DNA of 64,000 bases from assembly GCA_963920525.1 (NCBI GenBank), contig OY986437.1:57679330-57743329 (forward strand), in the 5' to 3' direction. The position numbers were made by a program, and so were the translations under genes. Positions 17,961-61,361 of this stretch are shown here, in pieces. The stretch is from Dichetophora obliterata (taxonomy: Eukaryota; Arthropoda; Insecta; Diptera; Sciomyzidae). How positions within the stretch are numbered: position 1 is the stretch's first letter; each line of letters opens with the position of its first letter. The notes under the pieces were generated by a model that made no database searches, had not been told where the DNA came from, and saw only the letters and a list, made by a program, of their open reading frames with translations.

Positions 17961-20880
17961 CGAAATTGGTAATTCCCAGCTTTATGCGGACACTACCGAT
18001 ACTCAAACCTCCACTACAAACGGTACTAAAAATAGGTTATTTTCATTTTCACAAAAAATAAAAATGTTCATATTATCTACTCCATGTAAACATCTAAGTT
18101 TTTAACTTTCCCTTTGAACAGGATAAATTTCTATAAAATATTAGGCACATACTAACCGGCTTGGACAAAATTATGCAATATCAATTATAAAAAGGTAAGA
18201 CCACACAATAAAAAGGATCAAAAATAGAAACAACTTAAAAAGCCATCGATTTAATAAAAATCTCAGATTTAGGGGGCCCCTGCCCCTGCCCCTTCTTCGA
18301 CTTATACTAGAATTATTAAGAATGGTTACAATTTGTCCCAGCTACAGCGATCTTAAGGGTTGAAAATTATATTTATTTTAAAAAAGACGCGGCCCAAACT
18401 TATTAATTTTAGTATAGGTTCTAGTACCCTTATTGATATGCACTTCGATTTGTTTCCGATATATTGGGTCTAAAATATCTTGATCCCGGCTGAAAACGAC
18501 TCTTTTTTTCGGCGCGATTAAAAACTGTTTTTTGTATTATTTATGCAAAAAAATTTCAAGTGTCTATGTTTTATAGTCTTTTCACAATAAATGTTTTAAG
18601 TTGAGTCCATTGTTTTTTCCAAACGTGTTATTATTAAGCAAATAATAACACAAGAGAACATATATATAAATCGAAAAGAGTGGTTCATGTTTTATTGTTC
18701 GCACGTTCTGAAGGTTTCTTTTTTGGGTTGACGAACTACCCACACCGGGCAAACGCGATCTGCCGGGCCTGGTTATATATATTAGCATATCCCGTATTTA
18801 TAATACCTTACCGATCTCATGCCAGCGTTATTTAATACCCTATTCATTGATGTCACTTTTTCTTCTGTCACTTAGAAAATGCATTTGCCAACGCACTTTT
18901 AGTCAGTTGTTAATTTTTCCTTCGCGCTATGCAAAAACCAAAAAAAAAAAAAATATGTACCAACAACAATAAGAGCGCATAAAAAACCATCTACTTAACG
19001 ATGCTGATGACAACGTGCAGTAAGTAAAATTTTGTTAGGTTTTGCTACTTCATGTTTGGATAGCTAATAAATATGTAGGGAAGCCAATACACAATTCTTT
19101 TAATAGATTATTGCGATCAACTGTAACATTGCTTCAGTTAATACTAAATATTGTACTAACCACTTTGCGTAACAAAGCATTTTAGATTTGTGGGTAGCGT
19201 GTAGTGGCATCGAATTGGTATGAGTTCCATTTTCATGGCTTACAAAGAAATATTTTTAATATTCTATTTTCTTGTTATCAGAGACGCAAGCAAAAAGCAA
19301 TATCAATTAAAAAAACGGTGTCGGAAAAAATGCCTTTTTTGAGATTCCAGTCAAGCAGATCACACAAAGATTCGTAAAAACCTTATCTTAAAAAGAAGAT
19401 ACAGTTTTGATAGTATCATAGGTATAAACGTATAATTCCTTTTTATGCAGTAATAGAGAAAAGTTCTGTTTTTTTATTTATATTTTTCAATACTATTTGA
19501 AAGCATTTCATCTTCTAAATAAAAATTATTCAAAAACAAATTTGTTGTTGTTGTCCTTCTTCAAACTTTCCTGATCTAAAAAGCTCACATTTAAATTCAT
19601 GTAAAAGTTGGTTTTGTTTTGTAAAAAGTTTTCGTTTGATATTTTTGTTGATGAATTTGTTGTTCTTGTTCATTTGTTTTGTTGGTTAAAACTCAATTTA
19701 ATTCAAAGATATTTTTAATTAATGGACATAAATATGGGTAAATTTGAATTATTTATTTTTCCTGCAGTAAAGAGTATATACATATAAGTTTATTTTAAAA
19801 GTTATTTAAAATTAAAATTTTGTTAATAAAAATACATTTTTAATATGGAAAATATATAATGCATAGTATAAATAATTCGAATTTATTATAGTACATGCTT
19901 ACAGCTCAATTCTGGTTTTTAGCTTAGCAAGAAATAGTTAATGAGCTCTTGTTTTGTTATGTAGATGTAAGTATTCTTAAAAATCATTTACAACATAAAA
20001 GCTTAAAAAGCTTTTAAAGTTCACCATGCATGGTGGAAATCGATATGCCTATTGAAAGAAGAGATGTGCAATATGAACAGGTGCTTCGAGTGCAGCTTGT
20101 GGCTTTGCAAGGGCTTGAAAAATTTGCCACGTCTACTGAAAGATTTCATTACCAACATTTAAAATAAGTAAAAATTCTTCCATTTTTCAGTTTAATGTAT
20201 TTAAACTCAATATAATATTCGAATTTTTTTTTTTATTATTTGCACAACAATTTTCTATAAAAGCACATAAATTTCATTCAAAATTGTAAGGAACAAAATT
20301 GTAAGGAAAAGAGCTTTTAAATTTGTAGCAGAATACGAAACCTTAACAAATTGTTAATATTAACTATTTTGTTAATGTGCTGAGCTTAGTTAAGCTGCCA
20401 GAATAGGGCTGTTAGTAACGAATGCGTTACCAACTCATGGCAGAATAACCAGGTAGGGCCGACTCGGAGAGGAATGAAGTAGAAAGCAGAGAAAAGCGAA
20501 CTAGTTGTCGAAATCAGCTGTCCATGTCGAGCATGGTATAAGGATAGAGGCAGCTGCAGCGCTGACTGTGCTCTCTTTCCATACTGCCATGTCTGTCAAA
20601 TTCAGCTGTATAGCGAATGGAAGCAAAAGAAAAGAAATAAAAAATTTTGCTTCGTTTTGACATTTCCGGCAGTATGCTCTCATCTGGTGCATCTACCTGT
20701 ATTCTTCTACCATGATGTCGAGTAAAAATTAAGAACATCTAAAAAAAATTTCAGCTAATTGAACCAACAACAACTACCAAGCAAATCTAAAACAACGACG
20801 CACAGAGAAGAGCAAGATCACAACGGTTGAGGAGAAATAGAGGGGATGAACCGAATCGTCCGGAGAAAATAAACAGTACT
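17961..20880. other. Non-coding stretch, no gene recognised
   Basis: Mostly AT-rich DNA. A small GC-rich hairpin (CCGGGCA ... TGCCGGG) lies at about 18743-18770. A GC-richer block at 20450-20700 gives short overlapping minus-strand frames without recognisable domains. Nothing here supports a gene. Confidence 0.4.
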
Positions 20881-31342: not shown

Positions 31343-31869
31343 TTAAGAATAAACGTGTGCTCGTGTGTTTAGAAGAAATTTGCTTAGGTTTAGTAAAAAT
31401 TTGCTATTCGAGTTTATAATAACTTAGCACATATTTGCATGAGTTAAGTAAAAATTTGCTATTTGAGTTTATAATAACTAAGCAAATATTTGCTTGAGTT
31501 AAGTAGAAATTTGCTTTTGCAGTTAATAATAACTTAGCATAATTTTGCTTTTTCCTAAATACATGAGGAGTGATTTTAATTTAGCAATCTTTTTCTAAAA
31601 TCACACCGTGATTGAGCAAAGTTTTGCTGATTTGCTTTTAAGCAAAACATTTGTTGATTCAAGCAAAATAATTATCTCCGTGTATCTCCTTTTTTTGAGT
31701 GCATTGTTTCCCTAAAAACGAGAACTATTTAAGACGCGAGCAACTGAAACTTGCTTGCTTGAAGTCTGGAGAGCTACTGAAAGCTTTTTATTTTTTAATA
31801 TCAACAAATGAGTGTGAAAGCTCTCCGCACAGGATGGCCTTTTGCGCACTCCTGCTTTAGAACCCAAAC

Positions 31870-47380: not shown

Positions 47381-47412
47381 AAAAAAGAGTCTGAAACGTC
47401 TGTTTCGTATAT

Positions 47413-47572
47413 GAAGTCCGAAATGGATTCGTATCTGAAGTCCGAAACGGATTCGTATCTGAAGCCCGAAACAGATTCGTATCTGAAGTCCGAAACGGAT
47501 TCGCATCTGAAGTCCGAAACGGATTCGTATCTGAAGTCCGAAACGGATTCGTAACTGAAGTCCGTAACGGAG
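47413..47572. repeat. 24-bp tandem repeat, six copies plus a partial
   Basis: The unit is GAAGTCCGAAACGGATTCGT followed by ATCT, tandem from 47413 to 47556 with one to three substitutions per copy and a partial seventh. Because 24 is a multiple of three, it is open in several frames and yields repeated octapeptides (FRTSDTNP-type) on the minus strand. It is the subterminal array of the surrounding DNA element, not a protein repeat. Confidence 0.9.
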
Positions 47573-47691: not shown

Positions 47692-49020
47692 AAGGCATTT
47701 AAAAGTGGCTTTGCTGTATGAGGATCAGAAAAATCTGAACTATTTCTGGGTATAAAGGCTAGAAGAGAGTACGCTTTAGGAACAAAAAAATGAATATGTT
47801 CATTAAAAGAGAACTTTAAGTCAAATATGACACCAAGATCTTTAATAGATTCAACACTCTTAAGAGGAACTTTAGAAAGATAGAAGGAATTTGTTAGGAA
47901 ATTATTGCAAGTAGAAAATGTAATGTGGAAGCATTTAGAAATATTTAACGGAAGAGCATTCAGTTTACTCCATAGCATCATCTTATCTAAATCAGATTGT
48001 AAAGAAACAACGTCAGAGATGCTAGTAACCCTCTCGAACAGTTTAAGGTCATCAGCATAAAGCAAAAATTTTGTGCTGCAGAAGATTTTATTTATATTAT
48101 TGATAAATAATATAAATAGAAGGGGGCCCAGGATGCTGCCTTGCGGTACACCCGAAGAAGCATGAAAAATGTAGGAATTAACGTCATTAATAGATACATA
48201 ACAATATCTACCAGTAAGGTAAGATTTAATCCATTTTAAAAAAGTCGAATGAAATCCCATTTTAAAAAGTTTAGCAATTAAAATATTATGGGCAACCTTA
48301 TCAAACACTTTAGAAAAGACTGTATAAATGGTATCAACTTGACAACCTAGTTCAAAGGATGATATGCAGTATTTAGTAAAAGTAGCTAAATTAGTAACAG
48401 TTGATCGACGAGAAATGAAACCATGCTGTTCTTGGCAAAAATGACGTTTAACAAGAAAAATATCTTATTTTGAATGATCCTCTCGAAAATTTTAGAAATA
48501 TTAGACAATTTTGAAATGGGTCTATAGTTAGAAATATCATGTTTTTGATCCAGATTTAAAAACTGGAGTAATATGAGAAATTTTTCAACTATCCAAGAAA
48601 ACACCAGATGCTAATGACATGTTAAAAATATGGCACAGGGGAGCAGACAGAGCATGAGCACAATTTAATAAAAGAATTGGGGAGAATCCGTCGATATCAG
48701 CCTTCACAGAGTTCTTCACTTGACATAACGATTCAAAAACATCGAACTCACAAAACATTAGGGAGTCTAAATTAAAAAAAGAATCGATGTTTGTTAAAAC
48801 AGCACAGTCTAAACTCGAATCATTAGCATAGTTCGCACTAAAAAAGCTAGCAAAAAGAGTCACAGTATCAATAATGGAAAATGACGATAAACCATTCAAA
48901 TTCATTGCTGTTGGAATATTTGAGCAAAATTTTTTTGATTCTATGAAATTCCAAAAAGATTTTATATTTACCTCAAAACCAATATTATATTGCTTATATA
49001 AGAATTTATTCCACAATCGC
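47692..49020 (-). pseudogene. Jockey LINE RT, N-terminal and catalytic part
   Basis: Minus strand from 49020: NKFLYKQYNIGFEVNIKSFW, VKADIDGFSPILLLN, then stops and frameshifts near 48590 and 48400 (ISNYRPISKLSNISKIFERI; QHGFISRRST). The frame from 48308 has FDKVAHNILIAKLFKMGF, SGVPQGSILGPLLFILFINN, the catalytic FLLYADDLKLF and IKDLGVIFDLKFSFNEH, and is broken at LLNAF by the DNA element. Confidence 0.85.
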
Positions 49021-50301
49021 CACAAGAAAGGCGATCCCACTATCTGTGCCAATTACCGTGGGATAAGCCTTCTTAATATCGCATATAAGGTCCTGTCGAG
49101 CGTTTTATGTGAAAGATTGAAGCACATTGTAAACGAACTGATCGGACCTTATCAGTGTGGCTTCAGACCTGGAAAGTCCACCATCGACCAGATTTTCACG
49201 CTACGACAAATCTTGGAGAAGACTCAAGAAAAACAAGTCGACACCCACCATCTTTTTGTCGACTACAAAGCCGCCTTCGACAGCCCAATAAGGAAGCACC
49301 TGTACTCCACTATGTCTGAATTTGGCATTCCTGCAAAACTAATACGACTTTGCAGGATGACACTGAGCAGCACCAGCAGCGCAGTTAAAATCGGGAAGGA
49401 CATCTCCCCACCATTTATTACCAAACGAGGTTTCAGACAAGGTGATTCCTTATCGTGCGACTTTTTCAACCTAATGATGGAAAAGATAATCCGAGCTGCT
49501 GATCTGAGACGTAGTGGCACAATATTCTACAAGAGTGTTATGCAGCTTGCGTATGCTGATGACATCGATATCATTGGCCATAATACGCGCATTTCCAGAT
49601 TAGAAAGAGAGTCAAGTCGAATGGGTCTGTCAGTGAATGCAGATAAGACGAAATACTTAGTGTCAACAAACAAACAGTCCCAGCGACTTTTAACCCACGT
49701 TACCGTTGACAATACCTCCTTCGAGGTTGTGAAGAACTTCGTTTATCTGGGATCCAGCATTAATTCAACCAACGACATCAGCATTGAGATCAAACGAAGA
49801 ATAACTCTTGCCAACAGGTGTTACTTTGGGCTCAGTAGGCAATTGAGAAGCAGAGCCCTCTCTCGACGAACGAAAATCACGCTCTATAAATCGCTCATCA
49901 TGCCCGTCCTACTTTACGCATCACAAACCTGGACGCTGAGCAGTTTAGATGAAAAGACTTTAGGAGCATTCGAGAGAAAGATTCTTCGTAAGATCTACGG
50001 ACCAATCTGCGTCAATGGCGAGTACCGAATACGGTGGAATGATGAACTGTATGAGCTGTACGCTGACATCGACATAGTCAAGCGCATTAAAATCGAGCGG
50101 CTTCGCTGGCTTGGTCATGTTCAGCGCATGAAAGACGATGCTCCAGTGAAGAAAACATTCGATTCGGTACCCAGCGGCGGTCAACGCAGAAGAGAACGAC
50201 CGCATCTTCGTTGGAAAGACCAAGTAGAGGACAACCTGACGAAGCTTGGAATTTCCAACTGGCGCCAGCAAGCGAAAGACAGAAATGGCTGGCGCCATTA
50301 A
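49021..50301 (+). CDS. RTE-type reverse transcriptase, 5'-truncated but open
   Basis: About 426 codons of uninterrupted RT sequence. In order: KKGDPTICANYRGISLLNIA (RT1/2), GPYQCGFRPGKSTIDQIFTL, LFVDYKAAFDSPIRKHLYST (first catalytic Asp), RGFRQGDSLSCDFFNLMMEK, QLAYADDIDIIGH (catalytic YADD), NFVYLGSSIN, then the RTE-typical C-terminus with YASQTWTLSSLDEKTLGAFE, ERLRWLGHVQRM and RPHLRWKDQVEDNL. Forty-nine codons upstream (from 48874) are open but are antisense jockey DNA and do not belong to it. The endonuclease domain is missing, so it is not autonomous. Confidence 0.88.
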   Translation, partial: HKKGDPTICANYRGISLLNIAYKVLSSVLCERLKHIVNELIGPYQCGFRPGKSTIDQIFTLRQILEKTQEKQVDTHHLFVDYKAAFDSPIRKHLYSTMSEFGIPAKLIRLCRMTLSSTSSAVKIGKDISPPFITKRGFRQGDSLSCDFFNLMMEKIIRAADLRRSGTIFYKSVMQLAYADDIDIIGHNTRISRLERESSRMGLSVNADKTKYLVSTNKQSQRLLTHVTVDNTSFEVVKNFVYLGSSINSTNDISIEIKRRITLANRCYFGLSRQLRSRALSRRTKITLYKSLIMPVLLYASQTWTLSSLDEKTLGAFERKILRKIYGPICVNGEYRIRWNDELYELYADIDIVKRIKIERLRWLGHVQRMKDDAPVKKTFDSVPSGGQRRRERPHLRWKDQVEDNLTKLGISNWRQQAKDRNGWRH

Positions 50302-50304: not shown

Positions 50305-50424
50305 CTCTTATACAAATTAATTAATTTTTATGATCTATTGAATAATTACATGAATTAAGATTGTGAGCTTTAGATCAAGTGAGTTTTCAAGAAGGCAACA
50401 ACAACAACAACTCTGTATAGAGTC

Positions 50425-50496
50425 AATCACTTAGCTGACTAGACAGTCTGTTTCGGAAATCGCTACATATTCCTCATCAGTAGTCTTTGAGTGATT
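50425..50496 (-). ncRNA. Type I hammerhead ribozyme motif, unit 1
   Basis: Minus-strand reading, 5' to 3': outer stem I AATCACT, loop CAAA, inner stem I GACTA, core CTGATGA (50480-50474), stem II GGAA...TTCC, core GAAA (50454-50451), a 3-bp stem III (ACA/TGT with loop GAC), cleavage triplet GTC, then TAGTC (inner stem I), AGCTA and AGTGATT (outer stem I). All conserved core bases are present, including the 10.1G-11.1C pair. Predicted cleavage is between minus-strand 50442 and 50441. The minimal stem III matches the form known from Penelope-like elements. Activity is inferred. Confidence 0.85.
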
Positions 50497-50999
50497 AAGC
50501 TGTGATCAACTCACTGTTTAAACTAGCATATGAATGGGCAGATCCTCTAATTCATTCTCATGAATTGTATGGCTGCTAATCATATGACACTTCAAAGCAG
50601 GAGGCCATTTTAGATCACCGCCATCAACTCTATCAAGGGTTGCCATCTGTTCTAGTTGCTTCTTCATTTATTTCAATATTCATTGGTGTTCGATTGTTTG
50701 TCGAAATGCACCATAGAAATGAAACGAGTTTTTGCTTCGCCAGAAGCTAGTGTTCTAACTGAAAGGTGGCTACTTTCACAACCAAATGTTCAATTACACA
50801 TGACTTTGACCGAAAAATTGATCAATTATTAGATTATTTAATTAATTTGACATTAATTAAACTTATTTGGCCGTGCTCTGCCATATTTAAGTTAATTAAT
50901 TTTTATGATCTATTGAATAATTACATGAATTAAGATTGTGAGCTTTAGATCAAGTGAGTTTTCAAGAAGGCAACAACAACAACAACTCTGTATAGAGTC

Positions 51000-51071
51000 A
51001 ATCACTTAGCTGACTAGACAGTCTGTTTCGGAAATCGCTACATATTCCTCATCAGTAGTCTTTGAGTGATT
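51000..51071 (-). ncRNA. Type I hammerhead ribozyme motif, unit 2
   Basis: Identical in arrangement to the motif 575 bp to the left: CTGATGA, GAAA, GTC, both parts of stem I and the tiny stem III are intact. Two self-cleaving motifs in direct tandem would release a unit-length 575-nt RNA between the cleavage points if transcribed from the minus strand. Confidence 0.85.
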
Positions 51072-51313
51072 AAGCTGTGATCAACTCACTGTTTAAACTA
51101 GCATATGAATGGGCAGATCCTCTAATTCATTCTCATGAATTGTATGGCTGCTAATCATATGACACTTCAAAGCAGGAGGCCATTTTAGATCACCGCCATC
51201 AACTCTATCAAGGGTTGCCATCTGTTCTAGTTGCTTCTTCATTTATTTCAATATTCATTGGTGTTCGATTGTTTGTCGAAATGCACCATAGAAATGAAAC
51301 GAGTTTTTGCTTC

Positions 51314-51367
51314 AAAGACTACTGATGAGGAATATGTAGCGATTTCCGAAACAGACTGTCTAGTCAG
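51314..51367 (+). ncRNA. Hammerhead motif in the inverted tail
   Basis: Plus strand: GACTA (51317-51321), CTGATGA (51322-51328), stem II GGAA...TTCC, GAAA, ACA/TGT stem III and GTC ending at 51360, then TAGTC. The core and inner stem I are complete, but the outer stem I 5' strand is missing because the inverted copy begins inside the stem I internal loop. It faces the opposite direction to the two tandem copies. Confidence 0.75.
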
Positions 51368-51887
51368 CTAAGTGATTGACTCTATACAGAGTTGTTGTTG
51401 TTGTTGCCTTCTTGAAAACTCACTTGATCTAAAGCTCACAATCTTAATTCATCTCTTATACAAAATAAATATTTTGCTTTATGGTCAGCATCATTGGTGG
51501 ATTTAAACAAATTTAAATTTGCTTGAATTAAGTAAAAATTTGCTATTTGAGTTTATAATTACTTAGCAAATATTTGCATGAGTTAAGTAAAAATTTGCTA
51601 TTTGAGCTTATAATAACTTAGTAAATACTATATGCTTGAATTAAGTAGAAATTTTCTTTTGCAATTTATAATAACTTAGTAAATATATGCTTGAATTAAG
51701 TAGAAATTTTCTTTTGCAATTTATAATAACTTAAATTTAAGCAAAATTTTGCTTTTTCCTTAATACATGAGGAGTGATTTCAATTTAGCAATCTTTTTCT
51801 AAAATCACACAGCGATTGAGCAAAGTTTTGGTGATTTCCTTTTAAGCAAAACATTTGCTTGATTCAAGCAAAATAATTTTCTCCGTG

Positions 51888-60765: not shown

Positions 60766-61361
60766 CATGAATTTAAATGTGAGATTTTTAGATCAAGTAA
60801 GTTGGAAGAAGGCAACAACAAAAACAACAACTCTGCATAGAGACAATCACACAGCATACGAGACAGCCTGTTTCGAAAATCTCTACATTTTCTCTTCAGC
60901 AGTTTTGAGTGATTCAGCTGTGACCAACCCACTGTTAAGTGTTACATGATTTCACCCTTGTTCGAAAAAATTCGTATGAACTTTAACGTTTTCATCGGCA
61001 ATTTAATCATATGACATTAAAACAGTTGCTATTTTCAGATCAAGTCTACCAGGGTTGCCGTCTGCTCTAGTTGCTTCTTATTTTTTCAATATTCATTGGA
61101 GTTCGACGAGTCTGCCGAAGTACATCTTAGAATTGAAACGAATTTTGCTACGCTAGAAGCTAGTGTTTAACTGAAAGGTGGCTATTTGCACAACCAAATG
61201 TTAAATTATTTATGACCTTGACCGAAATCGATCAATTATTCAAGATTATTTAAGTAACATCAAATTAATTAAAATTATTTGGTATGGCTCTACCATAGAA
61301 AGTTTAATTTGATAACTAATTGTGATCTATTGTTTGAATTTTTACATGAATTTAATTGTGC
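60766..61361 (-). mobile_element. Diverged Penelope-like pseudo-LTR unit
   Basis: This is colinear with the 575-bp unit at 50317-50891 along its whole length but circularly shifted. It starts at CATGAATTTAAATGTGAG and ends at CATGAATTTAATTGTG, so the terminal 16-18 bp are repeated. Matching landmarks include TAGATCAAGT, AAGGCAACAAC, TCTGCATAGAG, TCATATGACA, CAGGGTTGCC, CTCTAGTTGCTTCTT, AGAAGCTAGTGTT and TGATCTATTG. Divergence is much larger than between the two units at 50-51 kb, so it is an older insertion. Confidence 0.8.
60845..60914 (-). ncRNA. Diverged hammerhead ribozyme motif
   Basis: Minus-strand core CTGAAGA (60899-60893; an allowed variant of CTGANGA), stem II GAAAAT...ATTTTC (6 bp perfect), GAAA, 2-bp stem III with loop, GTC. 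Outer stem I AATCAC/GTGATT is preserved. Inner stem I has lost its perfect pairing (ACTG against TCGT). The core has survived while stem II changed to a new fully paired sequence. Probably weak or inactive now because of the inner stem I mismatches. Confidence 0.7.

What the first reader, a model, noticed from the sequence alone, without database searches (positions are those of the whole stretch)
50425..51071. Tandem type I hammerhead ribozymes in a 575-bp fly repeat
Seen: on the minus strand both units hold CTGATGA, GAAA and a GTC triplet. Stem I is 5 bp plus an outer 7 bp (AATCACT/AGTGATT) separated by an internal loop, stem II has a 10.1G-11.1C closing pair, and stem III is 3 bp. Known: minimal-stem-III type I hammerheads occur in Penelope-like elements and, in tandem arrays, in retrozymes. 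Inference: transcription of the minus strand would self-cleave into 575-nt monomers. The units carry no protein gene.
Basis: partly seen in the sequence, partly recalled or inferred. Interest (0 to 1): 0.9.

Follow-up and report, generated by a model that had tools for sequence, protein, structure and literature searches.

The report
Ribozyme repeat copied by Penelope machinery
A likely fly genome carries a gene-free 575-base repeat with a predicted self-cutting RNA (a hammerhead ribozyme), scattered as copies up to six repeats long whose ends are built like those of Penelope jumping elements in the same genome, so it probably spreads as an RNA circle or multimer that Penelope enzymes would copy back into DNA.

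Summary
In detail: two 575-bp direct units carry identical minus-strand type I hammerheads; a descriptor scan finds three in the window and 2 in 300 shuffles. The block is one insertion, not a satellite. In the 1.3-Gb home genome I read 25 young insertion sites. Where a duplication fixes the borders (16 sites), all 27 RNA 3' ends fall at two sites 33 nt apart, 92 and 125 nt past the predicted cut. 15 of 25 sites are head-to-head inversions; 12 of the 15 have one end of each kind, none two alike. Arms run up to 6.3 laps; laps within an arm differ less (0.76%) than between sites (2.03%). Two Penelope-like families read in the same genome have hammerheads and the same paired 3' ends (31 and 39 nt apart). 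So this is a retrozyme-type, non-coding element with Penelope-type ends, probably copied in trans from circular or multimeric RNA. Retrozymes are known; which enzyme moves the animal ones is open, and this family makes it testable. Cleavage, circular RNA and the exact partner are untested.

The parts
50305..50316 (.). left target-site duplication CTCTTATACAAA
   Evidence: 13 bp if a shared T is counted
51453..51464 (.). right target-site duplication CTCTTATACAAA
50317..51313 (-). long arm of the insertion, RNA sense on the minus strand, 1.7 laps of the 575-nt unit; 3' border 50317 = outer site
50317..50891 (-). reference 575-nt unit (unit position 1 = 50891, 575 = 50317)
50425..50496 (-). hammerhead 1, predicted cut 50442/50441
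51000..51071 (-). hammerhead 2, predicted cut 51017/51016
51312..51452 (+). inverted arm, 141 bp, with hammerhead 3 (5' side of outer stem I missing); 3' border 51452 = inner site
50317..50349 (-). 33-nt tail between the inner (50350) and outer (50317) 3' ends
50331..50377 (-). predicted stem TGATCTA (50377-50371) / TAGATCA (50337-50331) enclosing the inner site
60766..61360 (-). older relative of the unit, about 77% identical, one lap plus a short overlap
19542..19604 (+). 3' fragment of a relative, ending near the inner site
48874..50301 (+). target: LINE reverse transcriptase ORF; the insertion lies 3 bases past its stop codon

Best explanation
The repeat is a dispersed, gene-free 575-nt retroelement with a predicted hammerhead ribozyme and Penelope-type 3' ends, which is probably copied in trans by Penelope-like reverse transcriptase from circular (or long multimeric) RNA. 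Shown: 24 of 25 young insertions read have a border at the outer 3' site and the other one at the inner; 12 of 15 inverted insertions have one border of each kind; arms run up to 6.3 laps; Penelope-like elements with hammerhead cores, two of them with the same paired 3' ends, live in the same genome. Inferred: minus-sense transcripts self-cleave, a host ligase closes the monomer to a circle, a Penelope protein (perhaps a dimer) cuts both strands of an AT-rich target, one DNA 3' end starts cDNA at the outer site and the other at the inner site, each runs round the template until it stops, and the two cDNA ends are joined head to head, leaving a short target-site duplication.
For: Borders: 16 sites with a duplication (8-19 bp, maximal match) give 27 3' borders, 15 outer (570-575 or 1-3) and 12 inner (539-546). 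Inversions 15 of 25, every one with 3' ends outward; 12 outer+inner, 0 alike (exact p 0.0015). Laps: 25 of 40 arms longer than a unit, maximum 6.3; within-arm difference 0.76% (84 pairs), between sites 2.03% (2893). Penelope-like elements in the genome: 150 matches; hammerhead cores in 17 of 19 loci read; families A and B have paired 3' ends 39 and 31 nt apart, 64/103 and 69/100 nt past the cut as I read it. Printed Penelope anatomy is the same: head-to-head, 31-bp tail optionally on one inverted end (PMC3846280 passages); two adjacent RT starts, both DNA strands extended (PMC11167929). Hammerhead above chance.
Against: No cleavage, circle or expression data. An alternative fold beats the hammerhead without tertiary contacts. 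The Anolis Penelope hammerhead needs protein to cut and is not needed for insertion in vitro (PMC11167929). Constraint on the hammerhead among young copies is not significant (0.31% against 1.18%; 13% of equal windows as low). No Penelope family with clearly homologous ends was found: the 3' 80 nt score above shuffles for B (8 of 1000 as good) and C (2 of 1000), not A, D, E (uncorrected). Three of 15 inverted sites have a second end at neither site (L036, L041, L052). Six sites have laps that differ within an arm by 1.6-2.9%, and 4 of 13 two-arm sites share no variant between arms.
Confidence: 0.7

Rival explanations
1. Penelope enzymes do insert it, but the template is a linear, uncut multimeric transcript of existing arrays; the hammerhead is vestigial or only trims 5' ends.
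For: Heterogeneous laps within an arm at L032, L041, L044, L052, L054, L055; one 5' end at the predicted cut, L040 (449-452); in Anolis the unprocessed RNA is the main substrate in vitro.
Against: Up to 6.3 laps would need transcripts with many uncut hammerheads; laps within an arm are mostly more alike than laps of different sites and L032, L033, L037, L049 share 3-6 variants between both arms. A homogeneous source array would look the same.
Confidence: 0.3
2. It is only a deletion derivative or loose pseudo-LTR of an autonomous Penelope-like element, not a separate non-coding element.
For: Hammerhead followed by paired 3' ends is the Penelope pseudo-LTR layout.
Against: BLASTN of the unit against the fetched pieces of families A-E gave no convincing match; none of the 25 sites was seen to carry a Penelope ORF inside the arms, which align to the unit throughout; units repeat head to tail.
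Confidence: 0.2
3. Satellite or tandem duplication by unequal crossing-over.
For: Head-to-tail 575-bp units.
Against: Dispersed sites on at least five contigs, target-site duplications at 16 of 25, inverted arms, fixed 3' borders.
Confidence: 0.03
4. SINE-like element moved by a LINE, with twin priming making the inversions.
For: Twin priming makes 5' inversions; LINEs abound here.
Against: Both borders of inverted copies are fixed 3' sites; neither arm ends in poly(A) at the borders printed; the paired-end layout is that of Penelope.
Confidence: 0.05
5. DNA transposon or MITE with 141-bp terminal inverted repeats; hammerhead by chance.
For: A perfect 141-bp inverted repeat at this site.
Against: Arm lengths differ from site to site and the hammerhead is far above chance.
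Confidence: 0.02

Closest known systems
Metazoan non-LTR retrozymes (PMC7229834; review PMC7761336)
   Same: Gene-free tandem repeats with type I hammerheads, low GC, no LTRs, patchy in animals including insects.
   Different: 575 nt against about 170-400 nt for the RNAs described; borders here are paired Penelope-type 3' sites with head-to-head inversions, which the sections I read do not describe. Expression as circles is shown there, untested here.
Penelope-like elements (PMC3846280 passages; PMC11167929 parts 1-2 of 4)
   Same: Hammerhead, two adjacent 3' ends about 30-40 nt apart, tail on one of two inverted ends, head-to-head arms, short target-site duplications, partial tandems.
   Different: No RT/GIY-YIG gene; stem III has three pairs and a loop, against the minimal stem III I read in this genome's Penelope families.
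pDo500 satellite of Dolichopoda cave crickets (PMC2808323, seen in a search listing only; hammerhead and size of about 500 bp recalled)
   Same: Insect repeat of similar size with a hammerhead (recalled).
   Different: Described as a satellite; insertion borders were not compared here.
Plant LTR retrozymes (PMC4918200, search listing only; features as given in PMC7229834)
   Same: Non-autonomous, hammerhead-bearing, spread through circular RNA.
   Different: Type III hammerheads in LTRs, 4-bp duplications, Gypsy machinery.

Membership tests
metazoan non-LTR retrozyme | type I hammerhead core with its three stems | tested here: met
metazoan non-LTR retrozyme | gene-free repeat occurring in tandem, dispersed in the genome | tested here: met
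metazoan non-LTR retrozyme | unit size in the described range (150-450 bp repeats) | tested here: not met
   575 bp; size is descriptive, and PMC7229834 allows circles from 150 to over 1000 nt from such repeats in principle
metazoan non-LTR retrozyme | self-cleavage and circular RNA in cells | not testable with these tools
   no RNA data
Penelope-like element | paired 3' ends (tail), head-to-head inverted arms, target-site duplication | tested here: met
   same in families A and B
Penelope-like element | ORF with reverse transcriptase and GIY-YIG endonuclease | tested here: not met
   no ORF of 80 aa or more in the unit; hence works like, and is probably moved by, a Penelope element but is not an autonomous one
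plant LTR retrozyme | type III hammerhead and 4-bp target-site duplication | tested here: not met
   type I; 8-19 bp
Rfam Hammerhead families | score at or above the gathering threshold | tested here: inconclusive
   no match, but none on 5 Penelope-like loci with hammerhead cores either

The most novel reading that the evidence does not exclude
Each insertion is made by a paired Penelope complex that starts one cDNA at the outer and one at the inner site of a self-cleaved RNA circle and runs both around it: two-strand rolling-circle target-primed reverse transcription. Penelope-like elements would be the long-sought engine of animal retrozymes.
Probability: 0.4. Interest if true: 0.82.

Novelty: new variant of a known kind. 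Interest (0 to 1): 0.64.

Why it matters
The sections I read say that animal retrozymes show no conserved motif that tells which autonomous element moves them, and name Penelope-like elements as the strong candidate on grounds of shared hammerheads, tandem copies and co-occurrence (PMC7761336, PMC7229834). This family carries such a signature: Penelope's paired 3' ends on multi-lap inserts without Penelope genes, beside Penelope-like ORFs in one genome. The one-outer-plus-one-inner rule gives a concrete prediction of how a Penelope complex uses its two RT start sites.

Tried and rejected
Rfam scans gave no Hammerhead family; the control on 5 Penelope-like loci was negative too, so the scans do not decide. 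A DNA pattern in the viral and the prokaryote collection: 0 hits each. PF01541 in the own genome found one locus; the Penelope RT motif found 150 matches, so the Pfam search misses these endonucleases: on fetched ORFs the model hits family A below its cut-off and C above; in B, D and E I read the GIY-YIG by eye. The MAFFT alignment of 3' stem-loops misplaced families D and E and was not used; stems were read directly. Whole-unit folds are more stable than shuffles on both strands (z -2.5 and -2.8), so they do not single out the minus strand; short hammerhead pieces do not beat shuffles. Satellite, DNA transposon and LINE/SINE readings: see rivals. Hammerhead covariation in the older subfamily and an exact copy count could not be tested: the sequences and the pattern search never came.

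Not done: of the older subfamily only the window's own copies were read; L064's 3' end was not read; families C, D and E were fetched only between neighbouring RT motifs, so their ends are unknown; L066 looked like low-complexity sequence without a visible Penelope ORF; no search for a Penelope ORF flanked by this unit.

Full report
WHAT IS THERE. The two direct units (50317-50891; 50892-51313, the second cut short) are 575 bp apart and differ at 1 of 425 compared positions, which is the insertion border. Each carries a minus-strand type I hammerhead; all 19 base pairs of the drawn structure are standard. A core-plus-stems descriptor (stem I at least 4, II at least 4, III at least 2 bp) finds 3 places in 64 kb on both strands, and 2 in 300 dinucleotide shuffles taken together. 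The third place is an inverted copy, 51312-51452, 141 bp, 100% identical. CTCTTATACAAA flanks the block on both sides. So 50317-51452 is one insertion. An older relative lies at 60766-61360 (about 77% identical; core CTGAAGA...GAAA...GTC; one stem II pair changed on both sides; stem I partly decayed) and a 3' fragment at 19542-19604.

RFAM. The test named in the finding is negative. It is also negative on five Penelope-like loci with hammerhead cores, so it reflects the models' reach rather than absence.

GENOME. The home genome (1.31 Gb, 76 contigs) gives 52 matches at 93-100% identity, with only 40 of 1605 first-look candidates scored. I read 25 insertion sites with flanks: the window's and 24 others, all the sites in that list (L042 is a shorter duplicate of L055 and was dropped). 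At 16 of them a duplication of 8-19 bp (maximal match, so shared bases are counted in) fixes the borders. In RNA-sense unit coordinates (1 = 50891, 575 = 50317, predicted cut 450/451) the 27 3' borders at these 16 sites fall at 570-575 or 1-3 (outer, 15) or 539-546 (inner, 12), and nowhere else. The other 9 sites lack a duplication that I could use (matches of 5-8 bp or none); by BLAST extent all 9 have an outer border (575 or 1-10); L053 pairs it with an inner one, while L036, L041 and L052 have a second 3' border near 177, 343 and 526. In all, 15 of 25 sites are inverted, each with both RNA 3' ends facing outward; 12 of 15 have one outer and one inner end and 0 of 15 two of a kind (exact probability of full discordance for 12 such pairs 0.0015). 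Of the 10 single-orientation sites, 9 end at the outer site and L031 at the inner. The 15 arm junctions show overlaps up to 8 bp or up to 21 extra bases. In the older subfamily (67 matches, 40 of 6150 candidates scored) the 7 neighbouring opposite-strand groups that I count in the listing are also head-to-head; their sequences were not read.

LAPS. Of 40 arms, 25 exceed one unit, 12 two and 5 three; the longest is 6.3 laps. Laps differ by 0.76% within arms (84 pairs), 1.46% between the arms of a site (63) and 2.03% between sites (2893) (pairs are not independent). In L037 five variants run through both arms; L033, L032 and L049 share 6, 5 and 3 between arms; of the 13 inverted sites with two readable arms 4 share three or more, 5 share one or two and 4 (L045, L053, L054, L055) none; some of these variants are common in the family. 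Six sites (L032, L041, L044, L052, L054, L055) have laps that differ by 1.6-2.9% within an arm. Repeated reading of one circle explains the uniform arms; a uniform linear multimer would look alike, and the mixed arms point to multimers or later decay. Among the 5' ends and junctions one (L040, 449-452) coincides with the predicted cut.

PENELOPE. I read 19 loci, L057-L075. A hammerhead core lies past the RT-GIY-YIG frame in 8 of the 10 loci L057-L066 (not in L065; L066's match is another motif) and in 9 of 9 loci L067-L075. I sort them into five families A-E with different, paired stem II sequences. RVT_1 is found in the four families scanned (A-D); GIY-YIG in A (below cut-off) and C (above), by eye in B, D and E. 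Of 5 family B ends read, two are outer, two inner (31 nt earlier) and one 14 nt shorter still; of 8 family A ends, 3 are outer and 5 inner, 39 nt apart (read by eye). Distances from cut to inner/outer end are 64/103 (A), 69/100 (B) and 92/125 (this repeat), the Penelope cuts being my own reading. The Anolis element starts cDNA 111-118 nt into an ORF whose cut lies at 26, hence about 85-92 nt past the cut (PMC11167929). A 7-bp stem encloses the inner site here, and 6-7 bp stems of similar span occur in B, C, D and E; 58 of 5000 shuffles of this repeat and 99 of 5000 of B do as well in that geometry. The 3' 80 nt score above shuffles against B (8 of 1000 as good) and C (2 of 1000), not against A, D or E (uncorrected). 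This is suggestive and does not name a partner.

READING. The anatomy equals what is printed for Penelope-like elements: head-to-head pseudo-LTRs, short duplications, a 31-bp tail optionally on one of the inverted ends (PMC3846280, passages), two adjacent RT starts and extension of both DNA strands (PMC11167929, parts 1 and 2 of 4). The unit itself is gene-free and hammerhead-bearing like animal retrozymes (PMC7229834: Results parts 1-2 of 3 and Discussion; PMC7761336: two sections). Those authors name Penelope as the likely engine and say that no conserved motif tells. A search for retrozyme, Penelope and target-primed reverse transcription together found no paper, and the listings for hammerheads with retrozymes and insects, or with Diptera, show no title on such a fly element; the library is open-licence only, and the 2014 Penelope-hammerhead paper was not held.

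LIMITS. Cleavage, circularity, expression and the partner are inferred. Hammerhead constraint among young copies points the right way but is not significant (0.31% against 1.18%; 13% of equal windows as low; core set 7.8%). On paper another fold beats the hammerhead. The 25 sites are the best-scoring and so the youngest.

Noticed in passing
L057-L075 (Penelope-like families A-E of the own genome): In the five families the hammerhead has one extra base between CTGATGA and the closing G of stem II, which this repeat lacks (read by eye); whether it affects cutting is unknown.
   Followed up: no
G000 contig C8, 91612-168379: Six Penelope RT matches at a regular spacing of about 15.3 kb on one small contig, as if a large unit with a Penelope element were tandemly repeated.
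   Followed up: no
window 51517-51733 and 31388-31548: Two arrays of similar 55-bp tandem units (TTAAGTAAAAATTTGC...), one just beyond the insertion.
   Followed up: no
window 47404-47571: Seven copies of a 24-bp repeat next to a second, oppositely oriented RT ORF.
   Followed up: no
L040 positions 1664-2951: One copy whose 5' end falls at the predicted hammerhead cut (unit 449-452), as if a self-cleaved RNA end had been copied to its end.
   Followed up: partly
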